DNA from: Peronospora farinosa
Taxonomy: Eukaryota > Oomycota > Peronosporomycetes > Peronosporales > Peronosporaceae
Reading direction: 5' to 3'
Assembly: GCA_947646735.1 (NCBI GenBank)
Contig: CANTFK010000055.1
Span: 177,468 to 241,467, forward strand
Length of the DNA: 64,000 bases
Shown here piece by piece: positions 6,331-41,464 of the stretch. The notes beneath the pieces are model-generated. The model searched no databases, was not told the origin of the DNA, and worked only from the letters and a program-made list of their open reading frames with translations. The first letter of the stretch is position 1. Every line of letters begins with the position of its first letter. A program made the position numbers and the translations under genes.

Positions 6331-6339
6331 AAATTATGG

Positions 6340-18539: not shown

Positions 18540-18845
18540 TGAAATGGGCCAACCTATTACATGAATAGTTATAGAATTAATACATTATTACATAAGTAGG
18601 CATAGGGCAGTATCCGATTAGCGGATACTGCGCGTCATTTTATTATTGGTATGTTATTGGGGTGCCAGACTACTCAATAATCAACCATTAATACATCGAC
18701 TTCCATATTAAGTGGTTCCCATGAGCTAGGAAACATATTCGCACTTACTAAGAATTAAAACAAAACAAAAAAAGGGTTATATTTCTAACATAATTAGGAG
18801 CGCTTCCTTAACGTTCTTTTTAGTGTAAGATGATAACGGATTACA
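18540..18845 (+). repeat. 5' LTR of family B element
   Basis: Runs from TGAAATGGGCCAACC to GGATTACA. It matches 25438-25756 with scattered substitutions and small gaps, for example loss of about 15 bases near its end. A hairpin with 10-bp arms and an ATTAG loop lies at 18607-18631 and is kept in the other LTR at 25505-25529 with one mismatch. Confidence 0.88.
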
Positions 18846-18847
18846 CT

Positions 18848-18858
18848 TAGTAGCACTT
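18848..18858 (+). promoter_or_regulatory. Primer-binding site, initiator tRNA-Met type
   Basis: TAGTAGCACTT starts two bases after the LTR. It differs by one base from TGGTAGCACTT, the complement of the CCA end plus acceptor strand of the initiator tRNA-Met genes at 51459-60593 in this window. The exact form occurs in family D at 28301-28311. Confidence 0.7.
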
Positions 18859-18871
18859 CGTAGTCCTTCCA

Positions 18872-19910
18872 ATGACCAGATTCGAGATGAACATGGACGA
18901 GTATTTAGTAGCTCTAGCGGTCTCGCTGGAGCATTCTGATTCCCACATCTCACCTCGATGAATTAGCAGGCACTACACCGCGTCGCGGCTGGGTCTGGTG
19001 GATATATCGTGACGTCGCGGCTGAAAAAAGCGACGTCCGATGCTCAACGTGCCTCCATTCAAGACTTTATGGTGCGCGAGCTCGCCGAAGCGAATCGGCG
19101 AGTATTGACTCCCTCGCGCACTTCGCACTATGACGCTATCAAGATGGAGACGTCAATGTACTCCGGTGATGGTCCGGATCATCTCCCCCTCAATCGCTGG
19201 TTTCGCGAGGTGGATATTGCAATAGCGTCAAGATTAATTGACGCTCCGACGGCCAAGATTAATTTCCTGCTGTCTCGCCTTGTTGGCAAAGCCAAGGAAT
19301 GGGCTCTTGGAAGCTCGTCGTAGATGAGTCGGCGTTTCCTACGCTAGATGATATCTAGCGTGACTTACGACTGGCTTTCAAGCCTCCTTAAGATGAATCT
19401 CGCTTGCGTGCAGGTTTCTTCTTACTCCAACAGGGCAAGCTGTCGATGCGTGACTATGTGCAGAAGACACGTCATCTTGCTTCGTGCATTACCACGCAGC
19501 CAATTGACATGGCTTCACAAGTCCATGTCTTTATTTTTGGAATGCAAGAGGGCATGACGCGCTACTGCCTCACACGTGCTGAGCCAAAGTCCCTCGAGGA
19601 GGCATTTGCCCTCGCGCTTCGTGAGGATTACACTGTCGCGTCGTCGTACCTGCACGCAGCGTCACAACATTCCCGGACGTCTGGACCAGATTCAATGGAA
19701 ATTGATGCATTCAAGTCCTCTCGTGGTCGCGGCAAATCATTAAGCCGCGACATTCGCGATCCTAACACGATGAAGTGTTTTCGCTGTGGTAAAACAGGCC
19801 ATCGTGCGGCTGTCTGTCGTGCACCTGCGCCGGTGACGATGAACACAGCTGTCTCACGAGGAGACGCTGTGTCGTCGGTGGTCCCGCCAAAAAACGAGCG
19901 GTTCCAGTAG
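18872..19910 (+). pseudogene. gag of family B element
   Basis: An ATG at 18872 opens a short N-terminus ended by TGA near 18959. Further gag segments follow at 19009-19323 ([22 protein letters not shown]; capsid-like) and 19404-19910 (FFLLQQGKLSMRDYVQKTRHLAS, FIFGMQEGMTRYCL) ending with a CCHC knuckle CFRCGKTGHRAAVC at about 19776-19818. A stop at 19321-19323 and a shift near 19390 break the frame. It belongs to the retrotransposon-gag fold, which packages the element RNA. Confidence 0.8.
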
Positions 19911-19912
19911 GC

Positions 19913-21016
19913 GTGGGGCTCCCTACTGGCAGAAATGGAGCCCCGAGTACTCAGGTGGCAGCTCGGGCTCCTAGCCCCAAAGTGATTCATACCCACTTCA
20001 ATGCCACCACCATGCGCGATGATTCGAGACTGATTATTATCAGTCTCATCGTCGCTGGAGTGAAGCGACCACTTCGAGCGTTGTTGGATTCTGGCGCTTC
20101 CAACAACTTCTTTCGTGCATCCTGTTTGTCCCTTCTCCCGTCGAATGTCACGGTTCGAGAAGGTCCAGGTGACATCGTTGTCAAACTTGCCGATGGACAA
20201 CCAAAACGTGTCCCGCGTAAAACAGTGGTTTTACCGTACACTTTCGACGGTTTCCAGAGCAAAGACGAATTTTTGGTGTACGAGATGAACTATGCATTTG
20301 ATTGCATACTTGGGATACCGTGGCTGTCACGGTATCAGCCGAAGATAGATTGGCTATCTCGGTCCGTCAAACGACGAAGCGGTTATGACGTCAGTGAAGT
20401 GTTCACTCATTTGTTGGTCACTTCATCCGATTGGCCTCACGTCAGGGTCGTGAACAAGCTTGCCACGAATAGTAGCCAACACAGAGAGAGCGATAGCCCT
20501 CTGTGCGCAGTATGTTTTGTTACACTGATGGAGCCACAGAACAAGGCGGCCGAACAGCGGTTCCCGCATACACAGACATCGGTCGAACAGGGGTTCCCGA
20601 TTCACAACGAGGCGGTCGGACAGCGGTTCCCGCACGCGCAGACATCGGTCGAACAGGGGTTCCCGATTCTCAACGAGGCGGTCGAGCAGAGGCTCCCGCA
20701 TACAAGCACATCGGACGAGCAGAGGCTCCCGATAAATATCGAGGCGGTCGAGCAAGGGCTCTCGCAAACAAGTGAAGCGGTCGAAGACGAGTTCACGCCT
20801 TTGGTTGACGAGAATGGGCGGACTAGGGATCCGCATGAGACCGACGTGGTGGAGACAGAGCTCCCACGTCTAGAGGGGGTACATCATCCTCTTGTGATAG
20901 CGACGTTCCAGTCTCGAGCAGGGGCTCGAGACGCAAGAGAAAACGCAAGAAAGGAGCACGCCGATCACCGAGACGACGAAAGTCACGTCAAGATGCTGAT
21001 GCAAATAATTCCGTAG
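19913..21016 (+). pseudogene. Protease region of family B element
   Basis: A 367-codon open stretch with the retropepsin motif ALLDSGASNNFFR (about 20088-20120) and the second conserved strand FDCILGIPWLSRYQP (about 20300). The C-terminal half is filled by 12-residue repeats. It would cleave the polyprotein, but upstream and downstream frames are broken in this copy. Confidence 0.8.
20527..20775 (+). repeat. 36-bp tandem repeat in protease-RT linker of family B
   Basis: Seven to eight imperfect copies encode units such as EQGFPIHNEAV and EQRFPHTQTSV. All units keep the frame (36 = 3 x 12), so the repeat expanded within coding sequence. Confidence 0.8.
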
Positions 21017-22818
21017 TGACGGAATCCGTATGCGCGCTTGAATATGTGGAGGGATCCCCACATCGTGGCCGCTACATTGAGGTAGCGAGTCCACCGTGCA
21101 CTGCTGCAGATATCACATCTCTGCCAGACCTTACATGGAAAGACTTCCTTAATGACCTCAAGGCTGGCGACATCGAGCAAGTGCGCATCGTTTCAGCCAC
21201 CGAAGCAGCCAGTGAAGAAGTTCTGGAGGCTCGCCCAAAGAGCGCCGAGCCTAAATCAGCGAGCGAAGAACGCTTTGCGGCACAGTCTTGGGATGATCTT
21301 CGTGCTTCGGGCAACCCTGTATACGATATCGCCCGTGAGTACGCCGATATTTTCCCGGAGAAAATTCCAGCTGAGCTTCCGGCAGATCGTGGTGTGCGGC
21401 ACGAGATAGATCTCGTGCCAGGATCGAAATACCACGTGACAAGGCAGTGGACGCTACCGCGCGACCAAGTCATCGCTATTGATGAATTTTTCGAGGGTCG
21501 CCGCAAGGCTGGCCATGTCCGCGAGACATTCGAGTCCAACTTTCTGTGTGAAGAAAGCCACCGGCGGTTGGAGCATTGTGCACGCCTTCAACAAGCTGAA
21601 TGACGCCACGATCCCGGCTCAAACGCCTATCCTTCGAAAAGACATGGTATTAAATACCATGTCCGGGAGCGAGATCTACAGCGCCATAGATCTGACAGAC
21701 GGTTTCTATCAGATCCTGATGAGGTACAGTGACATTCCGTTCACTGCGGTCTGCACCCCAAGCGGGATGCTTTGGGAGTGGCTAGTCATGCCACAAGGTC
21801 TTAAGAATGCTCCATCTACGTTCAATCGGATGGTGACACAAGTACTTCGCCCACTTCGCGACTTTGCACCGAGCTACTTTGACGACATTTTCGTTCACAG
21901 CCGCGCTGAGCAAAAGCTCAGCGCTACGGAGGTACACCTTTGACACTTGAAGTATATGTTTCAAGTTATGCGCGAGAATACATTGTATGCTAATTAGAAG
22001 AAATGCGTCTTCTGCGCTCCCGAGATTCCAGTACTCGGTTGCTACGTCAGCAAGGAAGGTGTCCGCGCTGATCCTGAGAAGATCTCATCGATCTGTTCCT
22101 GGCCAACGCCCAGGAACCAAACTGAATTACGTCAATGGCTCGGTCTGGCGAATTACTTGCATAAGTATACAAAGAACTATGCTGAGCTAATTCAGCCATT
22201 ATCGACTTTGCTCAAGAAAGATGCAGTATGATTATGGACGGCAGAACATCAATCTGCCTTCGACTCCGTAAAGAAGAGCTTGTCCGAGGCACCTGTGCTA
22301 ATGCTACCTGATGACTCTAAGCCATTCCACGTCGTATGTGACGCGAGTAATTTCGCTATAGGATGTGCCCTCATGCAATTTGATGACGAGGGTCGAGAGC
22401 GCGTCGTGAGTTTTTAATCACGACAGATGAAACCTGCCGAGAAAAATTATCCGGTACACGACAAGGAACTTTTGACTATGCGTTACGCGCTAATCAAGTT
22501 TAGAGTATATTTGCTCGGTGAAAAGATGTTTTCTATCTACACAGATCACGCATCATTGCGTACCGCCATCAAGAGTCCTCACTTGTCCCAGCGTATGGCA
22601 CGGTGGTTGTCATTTTTGCCGAGTATAATTTTGTGGTGCATTACAAGCCCGGCAAGAATAACATTCTCGCCGATGCGCTTTCTCGTCGTCCTGATTACGA
22701 TCCTCGGCGCGACATGGGTCATCAAACGGAGTATGTTGATGACGACGAAGATATCTGTGTGTGTTGTATTGAACTGGGACTTAATGCGATGATTTCGACC
22801 CCCGTGCTTTCGATCTGA
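21016..22818 (+). pseudogene. Reverse transcriptase and RNase H of family B element
   Basis: Positions 21016-21603 encode the RT lead-in (HEIDLVPGSKYHVTRQW). After a frame shift near 21520, 21479-21943 carries the palm: SPTFCVKKATGGW, IYSAIDLTDGFYQ, WLVMPQGLKNAPSTF and the catalytic FDD in SYFDDIFVHS (about 21880). The thumb and tether (PVLGCYVSKEG, QWLGLANYLHKYTKN) follow with stops. The RNase H keeps its acidic residues: VVCDASNFAIG, NYPVHDKELL and YTDHASLRTAI. Another shift at about 22610 precedes KPGKNNILADALSRR. Confidence 0.85.
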
Positions 22819-22908
22819 ACTCAGATCGCTGAATCCTACGCGAATGATTCCTTCTATGCAGGAATCATCAACTATCTCAGGGAACCGAGCGAAAAATTAC
22901 TCGCGAAG

Positions 22909-25124
22909 TTGACGAAACCAACATTCGACAACATCAAGCGCTACGCGCTTGACGGACCGCTGCTGACGTACACGATGGACGTCTTTGATTCCCCGCGTGT
23001 CGTCATCCCTGCTGATGACGACCTTCGAGCCCGATTGGTTCATGAATTTCACGACAGCCCAGCTGGCGGACACCTGGGTCGCGAGAAGACGTTTGCAGCT
23101 ATTTCTCGCGTATTTTCTGGCCGCGAATGTATAAGTACATCCAGAAATGGGTGCGCTCCTGTGAAACCTGTCAGCGTGTGAAGCCCGCGCCGTCTTCACA
23201 AGCCCCATTGCGTCCGCTTCCGATTGCTACGGAAGCCTGGCGCTCGGTCAGCATGGATTTTATCTTTGGCCTTCCACCGGATGAACAGAAACGCACGGGC
23301 GTATTGGTTCTAGTGGATCGATTCAGCAAAATGGTGCATTTTGCTCCGGTCTCCGCCAACATTACGGCAGAGACGACAGCGATGATCTTCATTGATCTTA
23401 TCTTTAGGCATCACGGCTTGCCAGAATCTATTGTTTCGGACCGTGACCCGCGTTTTACTTCGGCTTTCTGGGCCGAATTATTCCAGCTATTAGGCACGCG
23501 GTTGCTTATGTCTACGGCTTCCCATCCAGAGACGGATGGGCAAACGGAGCGTGTGAACAGAGTGCTCGAATATGTCTTGCGCAGTTATGCAACATCGTTC
23601 TCATCATGGAGTTCATTTCTTCCACTTGCAGAGTTTGCAATAAACAATGCTGTCCACGCGTCAACCGGGTTGACGCCCTTTTTCGTTAACAACGCGAGGC
23701 ATCCTCGCGTTCCGGCGCTTCTTGCTCTCTCAGCTTCAGAACACCCTGTCTCAAAGCTTGGTGGGGGAGTATCTACGGATGGAATTGCGCCGAAACTATT
23801 GATGATTGATTCCGATGCGCATAAGGTTGCTGCCGATGCACCTAATACTGGTAATTTCGTGGACAACGTCATATCGACTCCTGACGCGATGCTTTCTCCC
23901 GTTGCCAATTTTGCTCCAAAAGAGAACACGTCGCCTGTAAGTTCGGCTGCAGTAACCAAATTTCTGCTATTACGACAAGGAATCACGCGTTTTGTGCGAG
24001 ATGCATTACAAGAGGCAGTCGACAAGCAAAAGGAGAATGCAGACAGAAAAGGACGAAAGAATATGTTGATATTTCGAGAAGGTGACAGAGTATTGTTATC
24101 AACAAGTGGATTACCGAGCACCTCAGTGACGAATTTGGGCGCTAATAAGTTAGCGCCAAGATACATTGGCCCACTTCGGGTTGTTAAGGTGCACGGTGAC
24201 GCTTACACGCTAGACATACCTACATCTATGCGTTTGCACCCGACGTTCTACGTCGGGCGCCTCAAGGCTTACCTGCCGGCGGATCTCCCTTCGAATCTTC
24301 CCCGCTCTTCTGTGCCGTCTCAATATACGACATCCCTTGACGGCGACGTTGACGACGACTGGGACCAAGTCCTGCCCGAACGCGTGCAGACCCGATCTGC
24401 TGGGGTCCTCCGAACGCAGTCGTCTCAAGTTGACGTAGGCGCTCAACCAGTACCAGCTGCTCACGTCGAGTCCGCTCAGCAGCCTCAGTCGCAGCATCCG
24501 CACGATCTTGAGATCTCTCAGCCATCTCGCGAGCATCAAGTATGGCATTCTTCGATTCCTCGACTTCAGCGTGAAGTAGACGCAGCTCATCATTCGACTG
24601 CACTGGAGCCCGATTACGAGAATCGGCGCTCATCGCCAGAGGCGTTCCGTCGTGATGCTCCTCCTCCCTTAGTTGATGCATCGGGTGCGCGACGCTGGAT
24701 TGTCGACCGAATTGTCGATCACGAGGATCACAAGTTTTATGCGCCGAGTAACAACTCGGCGCCCATGAAGAAGCGTGTCGAGAAGCATTACAGGGTTCGC
24801 TGGTTGGGATATTCCCCGGCGGACGATACATGGGAGCCATCGAGTACGCTGTTCCAAGATGTACCAGACGTGGTCGAGGATTATGAGTCGCGTAGGAAGA
24901 CGGCTATTGCAAGTGAAGCTGCCGATTCCATCCCCAATCTCGCGAGCCGTGATGCTCCCGAGCAACAGAATTTTGACGACGAGTCCCCGAGCGATTCCGG
25001 GATCTATTATGAGGCTCGAGAAAACTTGGATGGCATTTGCGACTATGTGGGTTGCCATAGCGAATCGAATATGGCAGACGTGGGGATCGAACCAGCGACA
25101 TCACGATCAAGAACTCAGTGGTAA
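22909..25124 (+). pseudogene. Integrase and chromodomain of family B element
   Basis: The zinc domain starts in one frame (HEFHDSPAGGHLGREKT) and shifts near 23125 to CETCQRVKPA. The long open frame 23127-25124 has the D,D-E core MDFIFGLPP, SDRDPRFTS and GQTERVNR, a C-terminal barrel (LAPRYIGPLRVVKVHGDAY, HPTFYVGRLKAY), a 130-residue Gln/Ser-rich linker, and a chromodomain (WIVDRIVDHED, YRVRWLGYSPADDTWEP). The last residues, VGIEPATSRS, come from an inverted tRNA-like sequence. The linker is much longer than in family C (about 50 residues). Confidence 0.85.
24262..24633 (-). CDS. Possible antisense coiled-coil ORF inside family B pol linker (123 aa)
   Basis: Reading backwards from the ATG at 24633, the product has a strong heptad pattern (RLLHAEVEESKNAILDAREM, ERSQDRADAATEAAERTRR, LVERLRQLE). 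An in-frame ATG also exists at 24840. It overlaps the sense-strand linker between integrase and chromodomain, which is otherwise low-complexity. The antisense proteins of families A and C lie in comparable places and also contain coiled coils, so this may be a related antisense gene fused into the pol linker. It could equally be a chance open frame opposite Gln/His-rich sequence. Confidence 0.35.
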   Translation of the reverse strand: MSADSRNRAPVQSNDELRLLHAEVEESKNAILDAREMAERSQDRADAATEAAERTRREQLVLVERLRQLETTAFGGPQQIGSARVRAGLGPSRRQRRRQGMSYIETAQKSGEDSKGDPPAGKP

Positions 25125-25141
25125 ACCACTGCACCAACGGA
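25072..25141 (-). other. tRNA-like sequence with both Pol III promoter boxes
   Basis: On the minus strand, 25136-25126 reads TGGTGCAGTGG (A-box form) and 25093-25083 reads GGTTCGATCCC (perfect B box). The D-arm is plausible, but acceptor and T-stem strands do not pair properly, so it is a tRNA relic or a SINE-head-like sequence and not a working tRNA. It overlaps the last codons of the family B pol frame. Confidence 0.5.
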
Positions 25142-25423
25142 ATGATAGCGAATGAAGAGTTTCGTTATGACTTCTCGCAATTCTGGATGATTAGCGCTGA
25201 TATAACGGTATAGCGTCCACGGGATCAAGTGTGCGTCCGTGACTCGCGGTGTCTGCTCCATGCAGATCGTACGGTTGTTGTCGTCAGATATATCATTGCG
25301 CGCGCGGCCAGGGTCATGCTGCTCAGTTGCGTGTCACTGAGCAGGTTCGAGGTTGTGTCGCTGCATCTTTGGTGAAAAGAATCATTTTCAAGTTATGTGC
25401 TTACGTTGTAGTAAGCACAACTT

Positions 25424-25437
25424 AAAGAGGGGGGTGA
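25424..25437 (+). promoter_or_regulatory. Polypurine tract of family B element
   Basis: AAAGAGGGGGGTGA lies directly before the 3' LTR start TGTAATGGGG. It is the expected plus-strand primer. Confidence 0.8.
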
Positions 25438-25756
25438 TGTAATGGGGCAACCTATTACATAAGTAGTTATAGAATTAATACATTATTACATAAGTAGGCA
25501 TAGGGCAGTATCCGATTAGCGGATACTACGCGTCATTTTATTATTGGTTTATTATTGGAGTGCCAGACACAATAGTTTACCAATAATAAATTGACTTCCA
25601 TATTAAGTGGTTCCCATGAGCTAGGGAACATATTCGCACTTACTGCGAATTAAAACTAAAACAAAAATAAAACAGAGTTATATTTACGAGTTAATTAAGA
25701 GCGCTTCCTCAACGCCCTTTTAGTGTAAGACGGTAACGGTTCCTTAGCCCGTTACA
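25438..25756 (+). repeat. 3' LTR of family B element
   Basis: Starts TGTAATGGGGCAACC and ends AGCCCGTTACA, giving inverted TGTAA...TTACA ends. It interrupts the family D protease-RT junction immediately after the motif ELPN. Confidence 0.88.
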
Positions 25757-27035
25757 TTAGGCAACTCGCACGGAACGGATTCAGGGAATACATCCTTGAA
25801 TTCGACCAAATCCTTGTACAAAGGATTTGACTTCAGCGACTCCCAGGATTGCGATGTATATCGTTCAATCCGAGTCTTCTCATCAAGGACACTTTCGTCC
25901 ATTGATGAGCTGCTGAGAACCCGTTCGTTCTCGGCAAAAACGGTTGCTGACCGAATGTCAGTCATGTACTCGTCTTCTGCGACGAGCACACAGATCTGCT
26001 TGACTTTTCCACTACGCAGATCACGCAAGAACCTTTTAGGTTCTAGCGTAGGCAACTGAGTTATCTCCAAAGTTAACTTCGGAGGCGCGATCAGATCAAG
26101 CGTATAAGCGCCTACATTTGATCCGTCATTAACCAAGACGTACAACGTCTTGGTTACTTCCTGGGGACTTATTCCCTCAGGGCACTGGAGACTTATTTCC
26201 TCAGTGATTATTTCCTGGGGACTTATTCCCGCAGGCTCGATGGAACCTGTTCCATCGACTTCCTCTAGCTGTGGTGGCGCAACCACAGCGAGATCCTCTA
26301 CGATCAACTCTCCAGTTGATCTAGGATTACCGTGTTGCCGCTTCTGGGCAACCGGTTTACTCTTCGGTGAATGCTGCCCTCTAGGCGAGCATTCATGTCC
26401 CGGTCCACTCGGCTTATTCAAGTGGTGGACCTTCGGCGCTGCCTGTGCTTGTGCACAGCCGCCGGCAGCTTGCTCCACAGCGTGACTGTCTGTCACGCTG
26501 AGTTCTTGTGCAGTCGTACTAACGATTGAACCACAAGTGAGGCCATCACACTCACTCGTAGTACATTCACACGCTTGTGAACGCTCCAAGACGTTCATCA
26601 GATGGCCATCTGATGAACAAGCGGCAGGCATCTTCACGGTTCGATGCTGCCAGCTGACCCATGGCTCATACCTTCTAGGCCATGGTAATCCTAGGATGAC
26701 ATCAAATTTGTCGTCCAGATCGAGTACGATGAAATCATCATCGTACTTTTTACCTTCAAGCGTGTAGTAAATTCCCACTACACGATTTTTACTGTTACGG
26801 ATGCGCCAGTTGCAAGGCGCACCGTCATCCTCGTTGGAGGGGTCTCGCGCTCAACATATTTGAGCCTACGATCATCTAGCGATTGGCGTCGAACAACTTT
26901 GTTCGAAGCCCCACAATCAACTAGGGCGCGAAGTGACATGTTCTTTGTCACTTCGATCTTCAATGTGATGAGGGATACCTCATCACTGGGAGCGGCAACA
27001 CACAGTGACTGTGTGTTGGGAGCAACCTTCGTCAA
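25757..27035 (-). pseudogene. Protease and RT lead-in of family D element
   Basis: The active-site region reads ALVDCGASNK, with Cys where retropepsins have Ser or Thr after the Asp. A one-base shift in a T run at 26785-26789 separates this part (26778-27035) from the rest. The second conserved strand is FDVILGLPWPRRYEPW at about 26690. A linker and the pre-RT segment (KDVFPESVPCELP) follow and end at the family B LTR. Confidence 0.8.
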
Positions 27036-28299
27036 GAGTCCCGCGAACTCTCTTGACGTTGCTGGATCAGTAGGGCGCTCCGCCCCTACTGACCCCGACC
27101 GTTTTTTGATGGTCCACCACGTTGTTGCGATTTCGCAGCAACGTGGGACCCACGTCTCTGGCCCTTCTTGGCAGACGGTCGATCGTCACTCTCAGTGTTA
27201 CGAGACACTGGGCGTGGGGCACTACACTCATAAGCGTAGTGGCCCAACTTCTGACAGCGATTGCACTTTTGCAATCGCTTGTACCCTGGAGAGCGAGGTT
27301 GCTCGCTCTCTACATAGGAGAGGTCCATTGGTTCTGGACCTCCGCCCTCCTGTCGTCTCGGTGGACGATAGGACCCCGAGTGGACGTGAGCCTGTTGCAG
27401 GCTACAGTCCTCCTGTCCCGCTGAAGAGATCGCTTGGTCCAGCGATTCTAGCTCCAAGCGGAACAGGTGGGTCTTAACAGGACCATCTGTCAGACCCTTG
27501 ATGAACACAGTAACCTGCGTGTGTTCATCGATTGGGTTCAGCACAATACAACTAACGAGGTATCGTACGTGTTGGGCGTAAGCGTGTATATCACGCTTAC
27601 CCTGTTTCAAATTCAGGAGCTCAGCCCGAGCCCTAAATTCGGCGCGAGGCGGTTCAAACGTGTGTTTGAGCCGCGCGAAGACATCATACGTTGAGAAAAC
27701 GTATGGGTCGTGCAGTTTGAGTCCTAAGGCCCAAGCTTTGGCACGTCCTGCCAAGTTCGACATGGCGAACTTGACCTTCATCGCATCGTCATCGATGCGA
27801 CGAGCCTCATGGCATCGTCGAGCTTGACGAACCATCTTAACAAGGAGTCGCTTTCGACTGCCTTGTACTTGGAGACATCAATCTTCAAGGACTCAGGTCG
27901 ACGTGTATACGCCGACCCGGCAGCAACAGCACTAGCCTGCTGTTGTCTCAACAGTTCAGACTGTTGAGCACCCTGCTGCATCAACAAGTCAGCTTGTTGA
28001 GCGCCTTGTTCTCTCAACAGTTCAACCTGTTGAGAACCTTGCTCCTCTAGCAAGGTGAGTTTCTTTACAACTTCGTCAAGTTCATGTTGTATGAACTTGG
28101 CGATGGTTGCATGTTGGTCGTCTCCGATAAGAGAGAGCAACATGGCACAAACGGCAGGGTTGCCGATGGTTTCAGCCATACGCTGAACCGCATTCCATTC
28201 GAGGTCACTCAAATGGCGGCAATCATCACGCGTTGCGTGATGACGTTCATCACCCGCTGATTCCATAGCGGGTGGTGCGGTGGTCGCTGAACGGACCAC
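25796..28299. repeat. Hairpin-dense tract in family D coding region
   Basis: At least 25 inverted repeats with arms of 6-13 bp, mostly 8-10 bp and fully paired, and loops of 0-8 bases occur about every 40-110 bp. Examples: 26237-26258, 26302-26321, 26478-26500, 26593-26618 (13-bp arms, no loop), 26723-26747, 26965-26986, 26997-27017, 27256-27279, 27289-27310, 27685-27705, 27947-27968, 27981-28000, 28013-28034, 28037-28055, 28077-28099, 28223-28243, 28253-28272. They run through gag and protease codons. Confidence 0.85.
27086..28266 (-). pseudogene. gag of family D element
   Basis: The first in-frame ATG is at 28266. The N-terminal half contains repeated LLEEQGSQQVELLREQGAQQ-type heptads (about 27940-28060), probably a coiled coil, then LLRWFVKLDDA. 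A frame shift near 27800 leads into MKVKFAMSNLAGRAKAWALG and the capsid end (FLKHTFE-like, ELLNLKQGKRDIHAYAQHVR). The CCHC knuckle is CNRCQKLGHYAYEC near 27220-27260. It is a typical retrotransposon gag, broken once. Confidence 0.8.
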
Positions 28300-28300
28300 A

Positions 28301-28311
28301 AAGTGCTACCA
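28301..28311 (-). promoter_or_regulatory. Primer-binding site for initiator tRNA-Met
   Basis: On the minus strand TGGTAGCACTT follows the LTR after two bases. All eleven bases are complementary to the CCA end and acceptor strand of the initiator tRNA-Met genes at 51459-60593. Confidence 0.85.
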
Positions 28312-28313
28312 GG

Positions 28314-28773
28314 TGTAGTGGGGCACCCTCCGACTATACTGATTACAGTATAGTCTACTTTCACTGATTACAGTGAAAGCAGGTGACTTAAAGCCTTTCT
28401 TACTTAAAAAAGCAGAGGAAGCTTTACTTTGAAATAACACGCTTAGAAGTAGAGGAAAAGGAAACTGTATTTAATATAGTTTACGATCTAATAAAACTAA
28501 TCTGTTATAACCTATGTTAACTATATTAAACTACAACTATGTATGTTGACAACTTGCCCTCCACTCATTGCGCGCGTCCACCGTTCATTGGTCAGCGCGT
28601 TGGTTGATATAATGGCCCATATCAACCAATGAGAGGGTATCTCCAACTTCAAGGAGATCTAGGGACAATATTATAGGAAAAGATAATATTGTCAAATATT
28701 ATTAGTTATAAACATATTTTTATTGACACTTCATACAAGGGTCAATATTATGTAACGGCCTCACCCCGTTACA
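28314..28773 (-). repeat. 5' LTR of family D element
   Basis: On the minus strand it starts TGTAACGGGGTGAGGCCG and ends CCCCACTACA (460 bp). Two adjacent hairpins sharing a central GATTAC lie at 28332-28355 (9-bp arms) and 28358-28379 (8-bp arms) close to the primer site. Confidence 0.85.
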
Positions 28774-29471
28774 ATAATACAGTGCCATTCTGCACAAGCT
28801 GTTAAAGTAGACTAAGCGCTTTCAGGATCCGGCAAACTATATCCTGTCGAAGCCAAATCTCGATACGTAGTCGGCAGCAGAGCGCATCACGAAGAAAGCA
28901 AATTGTAGTGTACGTGCAGAAAAACCTTCAGGAACACCGCCATGTCAATTCGACCTTGGGTCTGGGCCATTTGGCTTAACGGTAAGAATGTCATAACTTA
29001 GATTAAGTGTGACTGCATCAAAGGCTGCAATGTGGTAGTTGGCAAGCTGAAACTTGCGGCTTTGTTTACTTGGCACATTCGTCACATGACACGAGAAATA
29101 TCACGTTTTTAAACGTTGCAGTATGTGAAGCGGTCACGGTCAACTGATTAATCACGGCGACGGTCGTTCGGCCTGACGCGTGTCCTTCGGGCTTGCAGCT
29201 CCTAGATGTCTCCATTCGTCTTTCACACTTTGCACGTTTGATAGAATACACGTCGGCCTTCAGCTCCTATGGCGTTTGTGTGCACTTTATCTTCTCCATT
29301 CATATTCCCTTTTTTGCACGGCGCTTACCATGTTAATGCCCAAGCCCGTGCTTCATTGCATGTTTTATACCAATACCGGTACACATAATAAAGAAAGACG
29401 TGTCACAAAAATAGAAAGACGAAGAGAAACCAGCACTGATCAACTTGTCTTTAAGTCAAAAGTAAAGGTAA
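28774..29471. other. Intergenic region upstream of subtilase gene
   Basis: No gene, repeat boundary or RNA gene is evident. It should hold the promoter of the subtilase at 29472; I see no clear core-promoter motif. Confidence 0.5.
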
Positions 29472-33635: not shown

Positions 33636-34062
33636 AACAGGGCATCTAGTTACACGTAAACATTAAGTAATATACTTAATGTTTGGTTTAAAAGTATCCA
33701 TGATTACTTTTGACCTGTCACTTGGATGCGATACACAAACGTGATCCACCCTCGTGAATGTGATGTCCATTGATAGATTCACATGAGAAGGGATGACGCT
33801 AGTTGAAGCTAGGCATCGCGACGTCTCAGAAGGACGTCATTCGCAAACTTAAATCTAGATTTAAGATCATGCGACAGGATACGCTTCTAAAGAGTCGCGT
33901 ATCCGATCTATCTATATATATATATATATATATATATAGCCAATTAGTAGTTAAATATATATTTAGCTATAATTAATTAAATATAGCTCAGTCTTGAATT
34001 TGCTTAAACATACGCACCACGCACGAGAAGCTAACAAAACTTCTACGTGACGTCGGTGACTT
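33636..34062 (+). repeat. Partial 5' LTR of family C element
   Basis: It matches 41486-41904 closely, including the ATTAAGTAATATACTTAAT palindrome. The TA microsatellite at about 33913-33940 is longer here than in the 3' LTR (41757-41768). It stops at 34062 where the reversed family A LTR begins, lacking the last 170 bp or so. Confidence 0.85.
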
Positions 34063-34769
34063 TGTAGTGGAGTGGATTCTCAAACAACGTGAGAGAATCA
34101 CAAACACACACAGCGCCGGACTGCCGACTTACGGAGGGCTTCCCCGATACCGTGTCGCGTCAACCTTGGGTCTCACCTTGTGTACCCGTCGGCTTGGCTG
34201 GTCTTGCTCCTCGTTAGACGCAGAAGACTTAAAGACTTGGTCTTTGTATAAGACTTGGACTTGGTGGTCCCCGAGTGGATATACTTCACTTGGGACTGGG
34301 TTTCTTGGGCTCAATCGACTTAGTCGATAGCGATGCACCTGGTACTATGTACCCCTTTGGTGGCTGACTGTTCTTGGTCCTTGGACCCCTTTGTGTTCTT
34401 CCCCGTAGGGAAACCGCTTCCTGTAGTAGGTCGTAGAGTCATGACACCTCAGGCCAACTATCCTGAGGTTCAACTTGCGTTGCTTGAGCCGTCTAACACT
34501 TGCTGGATGTCGGGGGGCCAAAGGGTATCCCGCCCGGAAGAGGTGAAGCGACGGAGAAGCTTAGGAGGGGCGCTTAAAGCTGCCAAGTGTAATAAAAATT
34601 TGAGTGTGTTTATTTATCTTATTCTCTGTATGCTGTTCTTGCCAAACCCTAACCCTTCGCTCTGGATGGTACCACGTGTCAACTTGTGGAAGAATAACTG
34701 GCTCTTTTAGGACATGGGACTTGTACCGGCTCTGCACTTTAAGGAAGCTTTGTACCTTCTATAACTTGG

Positions 34770-35040
34770 GGTCCACCGGTCACCTGGGTCCACCTGTCAC
34801 CTGGGGTCCACCAGTCACGTGGGGTACACCTGTCACCTGGGGTCCACCTGTCACCTGGGTCCCCCGTCACCTAGGGTCCACCTGTCAACTGGGGTCCACC
34901 TGTCGTCTGGGGTCCACCTGTTGTTTGGGGTCCACTTGGCATCTGGGGTCCACCTGTCACTTAGGGTCCACCTGTCACCTGGGGTCCACCTGTCACCTGG
35001 GGTCCACCGGTCACTTAGGGTCCACCGGTCACCATGAGTC
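34770..35040. repeat. 19-bp minisatellite in reversed family A LTR
   Basis: About 13 tandem copies of GGGGTCCACCTGTCACCTG with small changes. Confidence 0.9.
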
Positions 35041-35234
35041 ATCTTGGTCCACCTTTGGTGTCGGGACCACCTTGGGTTGTGGTCCACTTTGGATCATGAT
35101 TCACCTTGAGTCCTGGTCCACCGTGGGAACGTGGTTGCCCTCGAGGCACTGGACTTTCAGGTTCTTTGGACTTGTGCCAGCTCTGCACTGTAGGGCAACC
35201 TGGCACTTCTCCAAGTGACTTCAGGACCCTGAAC

Positions 35235-35370
35235 CTTCGGTACCCCTGTCCCCAGCGACTGGTACCCCTGTCCCTGGCGACTGAAAACCCCGTCCCCGGT
35301 GACTGGCACCTTGTCCCTGGCGACTGAAAACTCTGTCCCCGGTAACTGATACCCCTGTCCCTGGTGACTC
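35235..35370. repeat. Second minisatellite in reversed family A LTR
   Basis: About six copies of a 22-25 bp unit built on CCCCTGTCCCTGGCGACTG, just past the 19-bp array. Confidence 0.8.
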
Positions 35371-35494
35371 TGAGCTGAACCTTGGGACCTTGCGAGACGC
35401 TATCATAGTCATTCCCTCGAGGGAGTGACCTGCATTTCTGTGCTCTTTATTACGATGTCCTCTGGGGCCCCGATTCTCTTGGCACTTCTCCACA

Positions 35495-36078
35495 CTAATG
35501 CTGATACATTGCCATCATGGGCGATCTTTAAGGCAAAGATTTCCGCCATGTATCAGCCGCCTAACAAGGAAGTGTTGCTTATGGCGCGCTTCTTTGGAGC
35601 ACGACAGGCGAAACGCTCTCTGCAAGAATTTGTGCAGGAGATGCGTTCGCTGTTGGCGTCCATTAATGGGGAACCGATACCGTAAAGTATCAAGGTGGCC
35701 ACGTTCATGAATGGACTTAGGCACGGCCCATCGCGTCAGGTCCTTTTTCAAAAGGTGCCAGCGACGATGGAAGAGGCAATTGACATTGCCTTAGTTGAGG
35801 AGCAATCCTACAACAGCGCCTCGGCGACAGCCTATTACAGGCCGTCGGCCGAAAGGTCTGATGCCACTCCTATGGAGTTAGGCAATGCAGATGTGATCTG
35901 CTACAAGTGCGGCAAGCGAGGCCATATGATGGCTCGCTGCTATGCCAAAGTAGCTGCTGGTGCTAAGGCAGCCAGCAAAAGATCTCCCAACCCGAAGGGA
36001 GGTGCGAAGAATCAGCGTACACGACGCACGGGTTCAGCACCTGCCCAAGATGGGTCGGGAAATGCGGGAGCGCAGTAG
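35495..36078 (+). pseudogene. gag of family C element (N-terminus missing)
   Basis: The frame enters from the solo LTR junction at 35495 (ADTLPSWAIFKAKISAMYQPP) and runs to 35685, where a TAA breaks it, then 35695-36078. It carries RSLQEFVQEMRSLL, VATFMNGLRHGPSRQVLFQ and the CCHC knuckle CYKCGKRGHMMARC at about 35900-35940. It ends in a basic tail at 36078. It is homologous to the minus-strand fragment at 18061-18539. Confidence 0.8.
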
Positions 36079-36141
36079 GGGCGGGATGCCCTACTGTCGC
36101 GGACTCTGAAGCTACCCCTAAGTTCAGAGTGATCGAACAAA

Positions 36142-37228
36142 TGGTTAGCATAGTCCCTGAGGTTCCGAAAGGTCGGACCTCAACCCTTTTGGTCTATAGC
36201 GCTCGAGTACGAGGCTATGACCAAGTGATGACCCTTCTCGTGGATTCGGGTGCATCACAAAACTTTGCGAAACTCGCGGCTCTGTAAAAGATACCGGCGA
36301 GTTATGAGTCGCTTTGCCAGGATGGCAAGCGAGAAGAGGTGATCGTTCGTTTAGCGAACGGCGCGCTCGTAAAATCAGAGGGAGCTCAAGTTGAACTCGC
36401 CCTCAGTTTCAGTGACTTCTCTTGTAAAGAGAAGTTCACAGTGCTAGGTATGGAGAGTCCGTATGACCTCATCCTAGGCATGCCTTGGTTGGCTAAACAC
36501 CAACCATGGATAGACTGACGTACACGCACAGTCGCTAGCTCTACGCAAGACACCGGAAAGGATGTGCTCTTGCAAGAGGCTGATGTGATTGATGTTGTGT
36601 CCAACACAGTCGAGGGTGCGATGACGGTATGTCAATCGACACCAGGAACTACCCAGCTCGAGAGGAGTGGTGTAGTTTGAAGTGCCCTGGCAGAAAGCCA
36701 GGTGACACATATTCCTACCCAGGTCGAATAGACTGGTGTAGCGAATGGGGCGATGACAAGTAGTCATGCTTCCAATAGTCCTGCACAGAGCCGAGAGCCT
36801 GTGGCAGTTGATGGTGGGCTGACAGGAAGTCAAGCGCCACAAGAACCGGCACAGAGCTATGAGTCTGGTGCGGCTGGAAGGAGTGTGTAGCTGAAATAGC
36901 AACGACACCTTCTTCCAGGTCAAAGGTCGTGGTAACTCGAATAACGAGCACCAGACGTATTAAGACGATCAAGGGCACGTCAAAACGAGTGACCCTTGGA
37001 TCAGTCTCGGTCCAAGAAGACGGACCTACGAACGAGTTGTTCGAGGCCGTCAACGACAAGATGCCGGAGGCATCCTCAGTTGAGGTGCTCCAACTGGTCT
37101 TGTCATCTGCCGAAGAGATAGTAAATCTCTCGGAGATGTCGTGGGATCTGTTCCTGTCCGAACTAAAGGAAGAAAAGATCCACGAGATAGTCACACCAGT
37201 TCCAGAAGAGAATGTGGTGGACTGTTGA
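36142..37228 (+). pseudogene. Protease and linker of family C element
   Basis: The retropepsin motif TLLVDSGASQNFAKL ends at a TAA (about 36285). The second strand YDLILGMPWLAKHQPW follows at about 36455-36510, then a TGA. The Thr/Ser-rich linker has more stops (about 36678, 36729, 36887) before an open stretch at 36929-37228 leading toward RT. Hairpins at 36344-36360, 36415-36435 and 36486-36506 lie within the codons. Confidence 0.75.
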
Positions 37229-37303
37229 TCTTCATCCACAATGGATGAGAGCGTCTTGGAGACCGACAAAAAGAAACGGTTCGCTGCTCAAGGCTGATGT
37301 GCC

Positions 37304-38278
37304 TTGAAGGACAGCCCGTTCTATGATGTTCTGTGGAAACACCGTGATGTGTTTCCAGCAGAAGTGCCGAGCCGCCTACAGGCCGATAGGGGCATCAGGC
37401 ACGAAATTGACCTGGAGCCTGGCACCAAGTATTGTGTGACCAGGCAATGGCCGTTGCCGAAGGAACAAGTCGATTACATCGATGAGTTCTTCGACAAGCG
37501 AGTCAAGGCGGGACATATGCGTGTGAGCAAGTCGCCTCACTGCAGCCCGACCTTCTGTGTGCGTAAAGCAACAGGTGGATGGCGCGTGGTTCATGCTTAT
37601 AATAAGCTGAAAACGGCCACCATTCCGTCTCAAACGCCGATCCCGCGGAAAGATGTCTTGTTGAATTCCATGGGAAAGTCAACTATCTTTTCCGCGTTGG
37701 ATCGGAAGGATGGCTACTATCAGGTTCTCATGAGAGATACTGATGTAGCCAAAACGACACTAAGCACCCCAAGTGGTATGCTGTGGGAGTGGCTTGTGAT
37801 GCCACAAGGGTTGAAAAATGCTCCGGCAACATTCAACCGAGTAGTGGCTCACGTGATGCGTCAGCACCGTGCCTACGCGCCCCATTACTTTGACGATGTA
37901 TTCTTGCATAGTAGGGTGGAGGACGGTCTGAGCGCGATAGAGTCGCACAAGCGTCATTTAGACGCTGTGTTGCAGATTTTGGGTGCCGCCCAATTATACG
38001 TGAACTTGCAAAAGTGCGTAATAGGGGTCCCCGAGATACCTGTACTGGGGCTGCATCGTAGGTGCACATGGTGTACAAGCAGACCCAGAAAAGGTAAAGG
38101 CTGTAAAGGAATGGCCAGTCCCACGTCATTTGGAGGATCTGCGCCAATTCCTTGGGATCGCTAATTACTTGCATAAGTACAGCAAGAATTATGCGGAGCA
38201 GACCAAGCCATTGTCTGACCTTTTGAAAAGGATACGGAATGGACTTGGTCAAAGGAGCAAGAAGATGCGTTCACTTCA
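37304..38278 (+). pseudogene. Reverse transcriptase of family C element
   Basis: The frame 37304-38164 has HEIDLEPGTKYCVTRQWPLP, SPHCSPTFCVRKATGGWR, IFSALDRKDGYYQVLM, WLVMPQGLKNAPATF and the catalytic FDD in HYFDDVFLHS (about 37890). A frame shift at about 38045 in the thumb (after IPVLG) is followed by QFLGIANYLHKYSKNYAE in another frame. Confidence 0.85.
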
Positions 38279-40108
38279 GTGAAGCAATCTCTTGTAGAGG
38301 CACTGGTCTTGGCATTGCCAGACGCGGATAAGCTCTTTAGCGTCGTCTGCGATGCAAGCAATTTTGCAATCGGCAGCACGCTCATGCAAAAGGATGACAA
38401 CGGGGTTGACCGTGTCAAATTTTATCAGTCTCGGCGTTTAAAAGCTGCCGAGCTGAATTACCCTGTGCATGACAAGGAGCTACTTTCCATTAAGTATGCC
38501 CTTGTGAAGTTTCGGGTGCACCTCTTGGGCACCGAACCTTTTGTGGCTTATACGGATCATGCATCACTGCGGACCGCTATAAATTCACCGCATCTTTCGC
38601 CGAGAATGGCGATTATGGCGAGATGGCTAACATTCTTCTCTGAATTTATTTTCAAAGTTGAATATAAGCCAGGTAAGTCGAATGTCTTGGCTGACGCGTT
38701 ATCGAGCAGATCAGACGTCGAGGCGAGACACCAGGAAAGTGTGTCTCGTGCGAAAGCACAAGGTGAGTCGTCAACATTGGCAGCCATGAAGGCCTACCAT
38801 GTGACGAGCTCATTGGCCTCTGATATAAAGGAGTGCTACAGTCAGGACGAACATTGTCGCCTGCTGTTGGATCATTTTGGTGGACGAAAGGTTATTCTTC
38901 CGTCACACCTTAAAGCGAAACTAAATTTCTTTAGTTACAGTGATGGCCTGCTATGGCATCAAATGTCACCCTGTGATCCCTTGAGAATCTACTCCCCTCA
39001 TGACACAGATCTCAAGCTGATGATACTTCACGAGTGCCATGATGTGCCATCTAGTGGGAATCTGGGCCGTGAAAAGACATTCTTACGAGTGTCAGAGGAA
39101 TATAGGTGTTCCCACCTATATCGGTGGGTGGCCAACTATATTCGCTCTTGCGAAGAGTGTCAGCGCATAAAGCCTGCACATTCTAGCAGTGCGCCACTAA
39201 GGCCAATGCCGATTCCAACTGAATGTTGGAAGTCGGTCAGTTTGGACTTCATGTTTGGATTACCGCCTGAACATAAAGGCAGGACGGGGCTCGTCGTCTT
39301 TGTAGACAGACTGAGCAAGATGGTGCATTTGGCACCATGTAGCACCAAGATCTCAGGAAAAGAGGCTGCCCTCTTGTTTCTGGATCACGTGTATCGACTA
39401 CACGGGATGCCCGAGTCCATAATATCGGACCGGGATCCGCATTTTACGTCGGGTTTTTGGCGACATGTGTTTGAGCTGCTGGGTAGCAATCTCCACATGT
39501 CAACCGCTGATCAACCCCAGACCGATGGCCAAACAGAACGGGCCAATCGAGTCGTGGCGGATGTGTTGCGTACTGTAGCGACTTTCAAAGAATGGATCAA
39601 GCAATTTCCATTCGTTGAGCTCGCTATTAATAACAGTGTTCACGCCAGTACGGGTGAAACACCGTTTTACATTAACGGACTGCGTCATCCTCGAACGCCA
39701 GTCTCGTTTGTACGCAGCTCGAGTCTTAGTGGGGGAGGGCCCCTCACTTCGCTCGGTGCGAATGCCAAAGAGGGCCAAGGTTGCCCTAGTGACACTGCTA
39801 ATTTAGCAGTGGTCACGACACCTATAGGTGTCAATGAGGAGGCACGGCAAGAAATGCCAGTGCTCCTTGATGATGACACTATAGTGTTGTCAACAGCGTC
39901 GACCCATGAACGACCTCTTGGAGGCGTCATCGGCGAGCTGGATGCTAAAAGCGTGAGCGAAGCTCAGTGCTTTGTGGATGAGCGATTAGCCATCACACGT
40001 AAAGTCCGTGACGAAATGGCAAGCGCACAGAACAAGCAAAAACAATATGCAGACCAGCATGGTCGCAAAAACAATGAGCACTTTAGTGTGGGGGAAAAGT
40101 GCTATTAA
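38279..40108 (+). pseudogene. RNase H and integrase of family C element
   Basis: A 609-codon open stretch. RNase H acidic residues are present: VVCDASNFAIGSTL, NYPVHDKELLSIKY and YTDHASLRTAI. Integrase follows: the zinc domain (HECHDVPSSGNLGREKT ... CEECQRIKPA) and the core LDFMFGLPP, SDRDPHFTSGFW and GQTERANR. It ends with a TAA at 40106-40108 shortly after HFSVGEKCY, before the chromodomain. Confidence 0.88.
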
Positions 40109-40163
40109 GTACTGCTACCCTACCTAAACATGCAATTTCTGTACTGGTGGTACTACTAAGCTA

Positions 40164-40505
40164 TTGCCCCGACTTGACTCGAAAGATCAGCTACCTCACT
40201 ATTCAGCGCAGCGGACTCAGCCTGCGACTGAACAGCAGCAGGGTAGGCAGCCGCGAGTAGGTGGGCGTAATCGCCGATCCTATCGGGCGCCACCTGTGTT
40301 GGTGGACACGGAAGGGAATACGCGCTTCCTTGTTGGAAGGCTGTTGGCGCACCGGTTTGTGAAGCGAAAGCTTCAAATCCTTGTCCAGTGGAAGGGTTAC
40401 CCAACGAGCTTTAACTCATGGGAGCCTGTGGACGCTTTGCGCGTTGACGTGCCTGGGCTGGTGGCTGCTTATGTGAAGCAGCACCAGCTGGCGTCTTCCT
40501 GCTAG
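40164..40505 (+). pseudogene. Integrase end and chromodomain of family C element
   Basis: It encodes NRRSYRAPPVLVDTEGNTR and the chromodomain FLVGRLLAHRFVKRKLQILV followed by QWKGYPTSFNSWEPVDAL. It is separated from integrase by a stop and a shift (40106-40163). Its last 95 bp overlap the antisense ORF at 40411-41373. Confidence 0.85.
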
Positions 40506-41373
40506 GTCCGGAAGGACTAGCAGAAGAAGCGTGGCGAGAATCAATTGGGGGTCGCTTACCACCCAAAATTTCATGCGCACGCTTCATGGCGAAGATGATT
40601 CGCTGCGACCGTTGTTTCGTTGCATCTACATGCAACGTTACACGGCGCCGAAGTTCAGCTTCATAGTCGTCGGCTGTTTCGTTAGAACGCAGCACGACTG
40701 GAATTGGGAAAGCATGACCAAATGCTTTGCCCTGCCTTTACCACAAAGGAAAGACGCTATAAAACCAATGAGCGTCAATAGTAGCACACTGCAAAAGCGC
40801 TACACTAGACCCCTTCGATTTTATCCACTCGGATGGAGGTGGCATTGGTGGCAAGCCACCACTCGCGTAGCCGCCCTCGCGACGGCGGGCTAGTGAGGCC
40901 GAACGTGTACTCAGTGGAGCTTTAAGATCACACTCACCTGAGTTTGACTCTCCATTAAGGATTGTTAAGACATCAGCCTGAGGAGTCACATCTGACTGAG
41001 TCGCGACTACTCCTTTCGAATTAGCGTGCTCAGTCTTAGTCGCTGCGCTCGTAGGCGCAGGCGACGAGGTTTTAACTTTGCTTGTAGGAAGCATAGATGC
41101 TTCCTCAAGGACGGGTGCCTCGAATGATGGGGACATATGTCCCATCAATGCGCATTGCTCATCACCACTTTGGGGTGATGGCAGTGGTGTGGTCTCATTG
41201 TAGTCTACAATGAGAGATGGATCTTCATCCACATTATCGTGAGATGGAAGATCCACCCCAGTGCCTGACGCACTTTGCGACGGCTGCGATAAATCGCGGC
41301 GCGTGCGCTTAGTGCTGGACTGCATGGGTGCCTTTGCAGGCGACCCATCAGCCTTACCACGTTTCGGTGGCAT
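40411..41373 (-). pseudogene. Antisense ORF of family C element (one in-frame stop)
   Basis: From ATG 41373 on the minus strand a basic N-terminus (MPPKRGKADGSPAK, STKRTRRDL) suggests nuclear localisation. An acidic Ser/Thr-rich middle and a helical C-terminus follow (NETADDYEAELRRRV, RSQRIIFAMKRAHEILGG). The only interruption is a TAA at 40738-40740, after which the same frame continues to 40411. It occupies the same place (between chromodomain and 3' LTR) and direction as the antisense ORF of family A, but I see no obvious sequence similarity. Function unknown. Confidence 0.6.
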
Positions 41374-41464
41374 GAGTACTGAGCAGACTAAAGCGGCGCG
41401 TTTATAACGGCTCGCAAGTCTCTCTGTCTCGTAGGCGATGTTTTACGAAATGTAAACATCGTTC

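What the first reader, a model, noticed from the sequence alone, without database searches (positions are those of the whole stretch)
25796..28380. Pervasive short hairpins throughout the family D retroelement
Reading the tract by eye gives more than 25 inverted repeats with arms of 6-13 bp (mostly 8-10, fully paired) and loops of 0-8 bases in 2.5 kb, often back to back (27947-27968, 27981-28000, 28013-28034, 28037-28055, 28077-28099). The largest, 26593-26618, is a 26-bp perfect palindrome. A simple estimate for random sequence (arms of at least 8, loops up to 8) is below one per 2.5 kb. They lie inside gag and protease codons, so protein sequence and folding must both be satisfied. Possible causes: RNA structure used for packaging or reverse transcription, Dicer substrates or decoys, or template-switch mutation that turns near-palindromes into perfect ones. 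I know of no described feature like this for oomycete Ty3 elements.
Basis: partly seen in the sequence, partly recalled or inferred. Interest (0 to 1): 0.88.

Follow-up and report, generated by a model that had tools for sequence, protein, structure and literature searches.

The report
Retrotransposon packed with short hairpins
A jumping element in a microbe akin to downy mildews carries dozens of short perfect hairpins along its genes and ends, far beyond chance and equally on both DNA strands, so something besides protein coding has shaped its sequence.

Summary
In 25796-28380 there are 32 non-overlapping perfect hairpins (arm >=8, loop <=10) against 0.39 expected (largest of 100 dinucleotide shuffles: 2). 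Synonymous-codon shuffles of another copy agree (gag 19 vs 0.64, pol 25 vs 0.71). The tract is a cut copy of a young Ty3/gypsy family (D). The 44 other copies compared have 2.6-14.8 such hairpins per kb, fewer with divergence. Two related families in the window are enriched; a third LTR element and host DNA are near chance. Folding-energy excess is 46% in D; a published survey gives 15% for SARS-CoV-2 and 23.4% as its highest genome mean. One hairpin sits behind a canonical -1 frameshift site; the rest have no individual explanation. The hairpins are strand-symmetric, mostly 8-10 bp in stem, mostly not at homologous places between families, and vary less in arms than in loops. Best reading (0.45): a genome-wide ordered structure, GORS-like, kept as a density and not only for the sense RNA. 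Main rival (0.3): fold-back template switching; loop inversions show that it occurs here, but hairpin birth by it was not seen.

The parts
25757..28774 (-). Window copy of Ty3/gypsy family D (LTR/leader, gag, protease, start of RT), cut at 25757; 35 perfect hairpins (arm>=8, loop<=10)
   Evidence: alignment to other copies ends here; 35 hairpins vs 0.40 expected
27086..28299 (-). gag, split over two overlapping frames in this copy (27778-28299 and 27086-27835); in L041 a 406-aa frame with Retrotrans_gag and Ty3_capsid
25744..27035 (-). protease and start of RT; pol frame is -1 to gag in L041
27068..27107 (-). -1 frameshift signal: AAAAAAC, 9 nt, then hairpin 27067-27092 with the gag stop codon
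   Evidence: 352 matches in the genome, 0 for the reversed pattern
25807..25829 (.). hairpin, arm 9 loop 5
26028..26044 (.). hairpin, arm 7 loop 3
26130..26156 (.). hairpin, arm 12 loop 3; perfect in 1 of 44 other copies, a G.T pair in 35
26237..26258 (.). hairpin, arm 10 loop 2
26268..26289 (.). hairpin, arm 8 loop 6
26302..26321 (.). hairpin, arm 8 loop 4
26478..26500 (.). hairpin, arm 9 loop 5; loop exactly inverted in copies L037 and L042
26593..26618 (.). 26-bp perfect palindrome; hairpin present in 36 of 44 other copies
26723..26747 (.). hairpin, arm 10 loop 5
26761..26784 (.). hairpin, arm 8 loop 8
26889..26906 (.). hairpin, arm 8 loop 2; loop inverted relative to L012 (shared with L039)
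26929..26955 (.). hairpin, arm 10 loop 7
26965..26986 (.). hairpin, arm 9 loop 4
26996..27018 (.). hairpin, arm 11 loop 1
27067..27092 (.). hairpin, arm 9 loop 8 (frameshift stimulator, inferred)
27141..27155 (.). hairpin, arm 7 loop 1
27256..27279 (.). hairpin, arm 10 loop 4
27289..27310 (.). hairpin, arm 9 loop 4
27320..27342 (.). hairpin, arm 8 loop 7
27500..27529 (.). hairpin, arm 10 loop 10
27578..27600 (.). hairpin, arm 9 loop 5
27685..27705 (.). hairpin, arm 8 loop 5
27752..27773 (.). hairpin, arm 8 loop 6
27781..27800 (.). hairpin, arm 8 loop 4
27924..27945 (.). hairpin, arm 8 loop 6
27947..27968 (.). hairpin, arm 9 loop 4
27981..28000 (.). hairpin, arm 8 loop 4
28012..28035 (.). hairpin, arm 9 loop 6
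28036..28056 (.). hairpin, arm 8 loop 5
28077..28099 (.). hairpin, arm 9 loop 5
28223..28243 (.). hairpin, arm 9 loop 3
28251..28274 (.). hairpin, arm 8 loop 8
28332..28355 (.). hairpin, arm 10 loop 4 (non-coding)
28358..28379 (.). hairpin, arm 9 loop 4 (non-coding)
28664..28693 (.). hairpin, arm 11 loop 8 (LTR/leader)
28751..28773 (.). hairpin, arm 8 loop 7, at the outer end of the element
18566..25527 (+). Related Ty3 element E2 (RT-RH aligned part 67% aa identical to D), also hairpin-rich, mostly at other positions
   Evidence: 28 hairpins vs 1.15 in 18565-25750
33644..41764 (+). Related Ty3 element E3 (pol 48% aa identical to D), folding excess 23%, fewer perfect hairpins
   Evidence: 18 vs 0.80

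Best explanation
Family D carries a genome-wide ordered secondary structure: many short hairpins, stems mostly 8-10 bp, loops mostly 4-6 nt, often about 9 nt apart, through LTR, leader, gag, protease and RT. SHOWN: density far above dinucleotide and synonymous-codon shuffles; shared by the family and, with other hairpins, by two related families; equal on both strands; arms vary less than loops. INFERRED: the element is kept densely folded, the density and not the particular hairpins being what matters, as described for the GORS of RNA viruses; because both strands fold equally well and G.U is not favoured over A.C, the sense RNA is probably not the only molecule concerned, and single-stranded cDNA is a candidate. 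SPECULATIVE: the benefit is shielding from host silencing or nucleases, or compaction in the particle. One hairpin (27067-27092) is explained separately as a probable -1 frameshift stimulator.
For: 32 vs 0.39; gag 19 vs 0.64, pol 25 vs 0.71 under synonymous shuffles; MFED 46% in D, 23% E3, 11% E2, 2.6% E4, 0.1% and 2.1% in two host stretches, against survey genome means of 15% and at most 23.4% (passages of PMC7642675). Stem lengths in L012: 2 at 7 bp, 16 at 8, 21 at 9, 9 at 10; hairpin stability more even than with permuted stem lengths (sd 3.01 vs 3.60+-0.22 and 2.71 vs 3.45+-0.27); linkers of 7-13 nt 16 vs 6.3 in L012 and 17 vs 5.8 in L041. Between seven old copies arms diverge less than loops in 21 of 21 pairs and less than outside in 20 of 21 (pairs reuse copies). 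Variants shared by >=4 copies rarer in arms than loops, relative to singletons (odds ratio 0.42, p 0.005). Double changes in L057 7 of 7 Watson-Crick.
Against: Sequence outside hairpins is as constrained as the arms by the same test (out vs loop odds ratio 0.40; arm vs out p 0.76-0.92, 0.14). Distinct double changes over all copies are 17 of 35 Watson-Crick against 0.41 expected, p 0.23. Only 1 of 9 hairpins of E2/E3 in aligned coding lies within 3 nt of a D hairpin. Stems of 6 bp are also in excess in D (22 vs 4.6) and E2 and E3 have an excess at 7 bp, so the sharp lower limit is seen in D only; E2 has no preferred linker. The stem-length/G+C correlation is weak (p 0.024 and 0.055). No function was tested.
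Confidence: 0.45

Rival explanations
1. Mutational origin: fold-back template switching, by the element's reverse transcriptase or by host DNA polymerase, repeatedly copies one arm into the other and so makes and homogenises perfect inverted repeats, without selection for structure.
For: Strand symmetry and Watson-Crick-only arms. Loop inversions, the signature of such switching (PMC8604942, section 6): 4 of 31 multi-change loop variants are explained by a central inversion: two exact by two or three transversions (L037+L042; window+L039), one with one further change (L051), one that two transitions could also give (L015, L024, L042, L057). Hairpins not at homologous places between families.
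Against: Multi-nucleotide changes that create complementarity are at control level (words >=7: 6 gains vs 8 and 8 in two controls; 78 losses; 514 blocks). Changes that restore single mismatches 20 vs 15.9 expected, P 0.18. The element does not clearly depart from conserved residues in arms (RT 2 of 29 vs 9 of 251, gag 3 of 46 vs 5 of 125). Arms vary less than loops. Young LTR element E4 in the same genome lacks the feature, so the bias would have to be lineage-specific. Loop inversion can be a consequence of hairpins.
Confidence: 0.3
2. Selection on the sense RNA alone (packaging, dimerisation, reverse transcription, or hiding target sites from silencing RNAs).
For: One hairpin lies behind a canonical slippery site. 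Counted by sequences, single changes in arms lean to G.U: 252 vs 150 A.C against the window copy, 241 vs 191 against L012; intermediates of paired changes 48 vs 22; variants shared by >=4 copies 14 vs 11 or 8 vs 4.
Against: As distinct events the lean is small or gone (singletons 68 vs 71; 85 vs 94). Mismatches fixed in the family: A.C 12, G.U 10, other 8; in L041 stems A.C 13, G.U 7; in the window copy A.C 9, G.U 4. Folding excess sense/antisense 46.2/48.8%; G.U share of pairs 6.1/6.0% against 12% in shuffles. No Rfam match.
Confidence: 0.12
3. By-product of base composition, codon use or the 33-nt gag repeat.
For: A 33-nt repeat (27941-28054) contains several of the hairpins.
Against: Dinucleotide, codon-permutation and synonymous-codon shuffles give 0.17-0.71 hairpins; hairpins also fill LTR, leader and RT; host DNA and E4 of similar G+C are near chance.
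Confidence: 0.02

Closest known systems
[quoted passage not shown]
   Same: Raised folding energy along the coding genome from many local stem-loops; pairings mostly not homologous between relatives; paired sites less variable than unpaired loops.
   Different: An LTR retrotransposon; MFED 46% against genome means of 15% (SARS-CoV-2) and 23.4% (highest there; a local peak above 50% is reported in one gene); uniform short stems; strand-symmetric with no G.U preference. I did not measure strand symmetry in viral GORS.
Template-switch inverted repeats in yeast coding DNA (PMC8604942: abstract; section 6)
   Same: Perfect short inverted repeats inside genes; exact spacer inversions between relatives.
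   Different: There, tens of events over a genome (39 genes); here some 45 hairpins in 3 kb of one element family, conserved across copies, with no births detected.
Yeast Ty3 and Ty1 genomic RNA structure (PMC11381356: abstract; section 29)
   Same: Ty3-type element; structured regions dispersed over the genome; frameshift site in a stable region; palindromes at the 5' end.
   Different: There structured regions are up to 30% of a mosaic with flexible parts; here nearly every 120-nt window of L041 is over-folded (92% with z below -2).

Membership tests
Ty3/gypsy LTR retrotransposon | Ty3-type gag, aspartic protease, RT and RNase H | tested here: met
   Retrotrans_gag, Ty3_capsid, RVP_2, Peptidase_A2B, RVT_1, RT_RNaseH in L041
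Ty3/gypsy LTR retrotransposon | integrase after RNase H, and two LTRs, for family D itself | not tested
GORS | folding energy well above shuffled controls throughout the genome | tested here: met
   MFED 46%, 13 pieces of L041, 15 shuffles each; 92% of 77 windows z below -2; only 4.7 kb of the element was available
GORS | pairings not homologous between related genomes | tested here: met
   1 of 9 E2/E3 hairpin centres within 3 nt of a D hairpin
GORS | paired sites less variable than unpaired sites | tested here: inconclusive
   true against loops, not against sequence outside hairpins
GORS | acts in the sense RNA genome | tested here: inconclusive
   sense and antisense equal; no viral yardstick was run
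GORS | positive-strand RNA virus, link with persistence | tested here: not met
   integrated LTR element; I therefore say it works like GORS, not that it is a member
Template-switch hairpins | spacer inversion between relatives | tested here: met
Template-switch hairpins | arms created by multi-nucleotide changes copied from the partner arm | tested here: not met
   6 gains vs 8 and 8 in controls
-1 programmed frameshift signal | slippery heptamer in the gag frame, stem 5-10 nt downstream, pol in the -1 frame | tested here: met
   frameshifting itself not testable; the rule is recalled
Known structured RNA family | match to an Rfam family | tested here: not met
   0 matches at E<=1 in 18500-29300

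The most novel reading that the evidence does not exclude
A retrotransposon lineage keeps an array of uniform 8-10 bp hairpins along its whole genome with a strand-neutral target: single-stranded cDNA as well as RNA must fold. Hairpins are replaced over time while the proteins are preserved. I know of no such constraint described for a retroelement.
Probability: 0.3. Interest if true: 0.9.

Novelty: new variant of a known kind. Interest (0 to 1): 0.8.

Why it matters
Genome-scale structure is known from RNA viruses, where it is associated with persistence and possibly with shielding from recognition. Finding it, stronger than the genome means in the survey passages I saw, in a mobile element with hundreds of copies gives a case in which gain and loss of structure can be followed copy by copy. 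Strand symmetry makes the usual RNA-only explanation testable and brings in the cDNA stage or template switching. It would also change how codon choice and protein variation in such elements are read.

Tried and rejected
Chance and composition: rejected. Tandem-repeat origin: covers only a few hairpins. Conserved individual RNA elements: not found, except the frameshift hairpin. Sense-RNA selection alone: disfavoured. Birth of hairpins by template switching in present copies: not seen. Preferential repair of single mismatches: not significant. Compensatory change over all distinct events: not significant. Codon register of stems: all three registers occur. Overwriting of conserved residues: not significant; arms are less identical to E2 and E3 than outside in RT (0.52 vs 0.69; 0.32 vs 0.51) but not in protease or gag; in RT, arms avoid conserved columns (29 of 63 vs 251 of 418, p 0.04), in gag they do not (p 0.64). 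Periodic placement: no clean period. Linker or loop motif: none seen by eye. DNA of D-like elements from other organisms: none found; relatives were available only as proteins.

Rows dropped: of 50 D loci, six were dropped before counting (the window copy and five duplicates), leaving 44. These are the 30 best-scoring of the 153 matches (1893 candidates, 150 scored) and 20 picked over the range of identity. In one search (six E2 loci) L063 gave no aligned rows because of its orientation. One search counts cells, distinct events.
Full report
WHAT IS THERE. The tract 25796-28380 lies in a minus-strand Ty3/gypsy element, family D. The window copy runs from about 28774 to 25757, where its match to other copies ends. 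Copy L041 has gag (Retrotrans_gag, Ty3_capsid) and a pol frame with aspartic protease, RT and RNase H. The best protein relative of the RT is from Peronospora effusa (98% over 501 aa), so the host is probably that downy mildew or near kin (inference). The family is abundant: 153 gag matches from 150 scored of 1893 candidates in the 46.9 Mb assembly.

THE HAIRPINS ARE REAL. With arm >=8 and loop <=10 the tract holds 32 non-overlapping perfect hairpins; 100 dinucleotide shuffles give 0.39 on average and at most 2. In L041 gag has 19 and pol 25, against 0.64 and 0.71 in 200 synonymous-codon shuffles each. The LTR/leader has them too. Of 35 hairpins in the window copy, 34 recur in 15-38 of 44 other copies and one in 1 of 44; density in the 44 runs from 2.57 to 14.82 per kb. 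Copy L012 has 45 in the same 3.0 kb.

HOW EXTREME. Folding-energy excess over dinucleotide shuffles in 350-nt pieces is 46% for D (4.7 kb of L041), 23% for E3, 11% for E2, 2.6% for E4 and 0.1% and 2.1% for two host stretches; against synonymous shuffles it is 47.6% for gag and 42.6% for pol. Passages of PMC7642675 give 15% for SARS-CoV-2, 7.5-10.7% for HCV and 23.4% as the highest genome mean, with one local peak above 50%; its shuffling differs from mine. E4 (2.05-14.4 kb) is an LTR element with an integrase domain whose end repeats share long identical runs. Its interior has 3 hairpins against 1.2 expected and a 1.2-kb end repeat 2 against 0.15, so being an LTR element in this host is not enough to give the D pattern.

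ANATOMY. In L012 stems number 22 at 6 bp (4.6 expected), 2 at 7 (1.2), 16 at 8 (0.2), 21 at 9, 9 at 10, 3 at 11 and 2 at 12. L016 and L050 also have 2 at 7 bp; L041 has 8; E2 and E3 have an excess at 7 (12 vs 2.0, 14 vs 2.5), so the dip is a feature of D. In L012 38 of 51 loops of the long stems are 4-6 nt. Stability is more even than with permuted stem lengths, and AT-rich stems tend to be longer (rho -0.32, p 0.024; -0.27, p 0.055). Neighbouring hairpins (arm >=7) are often 7-13 nt apart, most often 9: 16 vs 6.3 in L012 (p 0.0004), 17 vs 5.8 in L041; E2 has 1 vs 1.5 and E3 2 vs 0.6.

ONE HAIRPIN EXPLAINED. Hairpin 27067-27092 holds the gag stop codon, nine bases after AAAAAAC read as TCA AAA AAC in gag, a canonical -1 slippery site (rule recalled); pol is in the -1 frame in L041. 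The pattern has 352 matches in the genome and none when reversed. Frameshifting itself is inferred.

STRAND SYMMETRY. If only the sense RNA were selected, G.U should be tolerated more than A.C. Mismatches fixed in the family are A.C 12, G.U 10, other 8; in L041 stems A.C 13, G.U 7, other 4. Folding excess is equal on both strands (46.2 and 48.8%) and G.U makes 6.1 and 6.0% of predicted pairs against 12% in shuffles. Against this: counted by sequences, single changes in arms lean to G.U (252 vs 150; 241 vs 191), and shared variants lean slightly (14 vs 11; 8 vs 4); as distinct singletons the lean is gone (68 vs 71). Viral GORS was not measured for this.

MAINTENANCE AND TURNOVER. In aligned coding, 1 of 9 E2/E3 hairpin centres lies within 3 nt of a D hairpin. 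Within D the set is old: in L058, 20% divergent, 65 pairs have one change and 5 two, of about 270 by my arithmetic. Between seven old copies arms diverge less than loops in 21 of 21 pairs and less than outside in 20 of 21 (copies are reused, so no formal test). Variants shared by four or more copies are rarer in arms than loops relative to singletons (odds ratio 0.42, p 0.005), but outside sequence is as low as arms. Double changes are 7 of 7 Watson-Crick in L057, yet 17 of 35 distinct ones over all copies, not above expectation. In the few E2 copies arms also diverge less than outside, but those hairpins were chosen in one of the copies compared, which favours that result.

TEMPLATE SWITCHING. 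Four of 31 multi-change loop variants are explained by inversion of the hairpin centre, for example TGTCT to AGACA, the signature described in PMC8604942 (section 6). So switching, in the element's or the host's replication, happens at these hairpins. Creation of complementarity by multi-nucleotide change is at control level (6 vs 8 and 8) and restoration of single mismatches is not above expectation (20 vs 15.9, P 0.18). With few replication rounds between these copies, a slow rate of birth is not excluded.

JUDGEMENT. The pattern resembles GORS in kind but exceeds its published strength and differs by strand symmetry and by uniform stems. I hold a maintained folded state most likely (0.45), a purely mutational origin next (0.3), sense-RNA selection alone unlikely (0.12). 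Its purpose is speculation. That nothing like it is in print for LTR elements rests on the listings of nine searches of one open-access library.

Noticed in passing
27068-27107 (-) and 19889-19928 (+): A -1 frameshift signal (AAAAAAC, 9 nt, hairpin with the gag stop) shared by D and E2, with 352 genome matches.
   Followed up: partly
2050-14371: A different LTR element (E4) with near-identical end-repeat runs, an integrase domain, a 656-aa reading frame on the opposite strand (11163-13133) and almost no hairpins.
   Followed up: partly
50565-64000: Large tandem array with a spacing of about 367 bp; no hairpins against 2.7 expected.
   Followed up: no
one search list, e.g. L047, L048, L050, L051, L053: A set of gag copies of family D carrying two to four TGA stops each; possibly a non-coding subfamily that still spreads.
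   Followed up: no
L040 1-5059: Two D copies lie head to head, an inverted pair.
   Followed up: no
25756/25757; also L047, L055, L058: The join of D to E2-like end sequence at the same D position recurs near or in other copies, which may mean that one insertion was copied as a compound element.
   Followed up: no
27941-28054: A 33-nt direct repeat in gag, three copies 69-79% alike, overlapping several hairpins.
   Followed up: no
33644-33911 and 41491-41758: The ends of E3 hold A+T-rich perfect palindromes (arms 8-14) that raise the local count around 33.6 and 41-42 kb.
   Followed up: no
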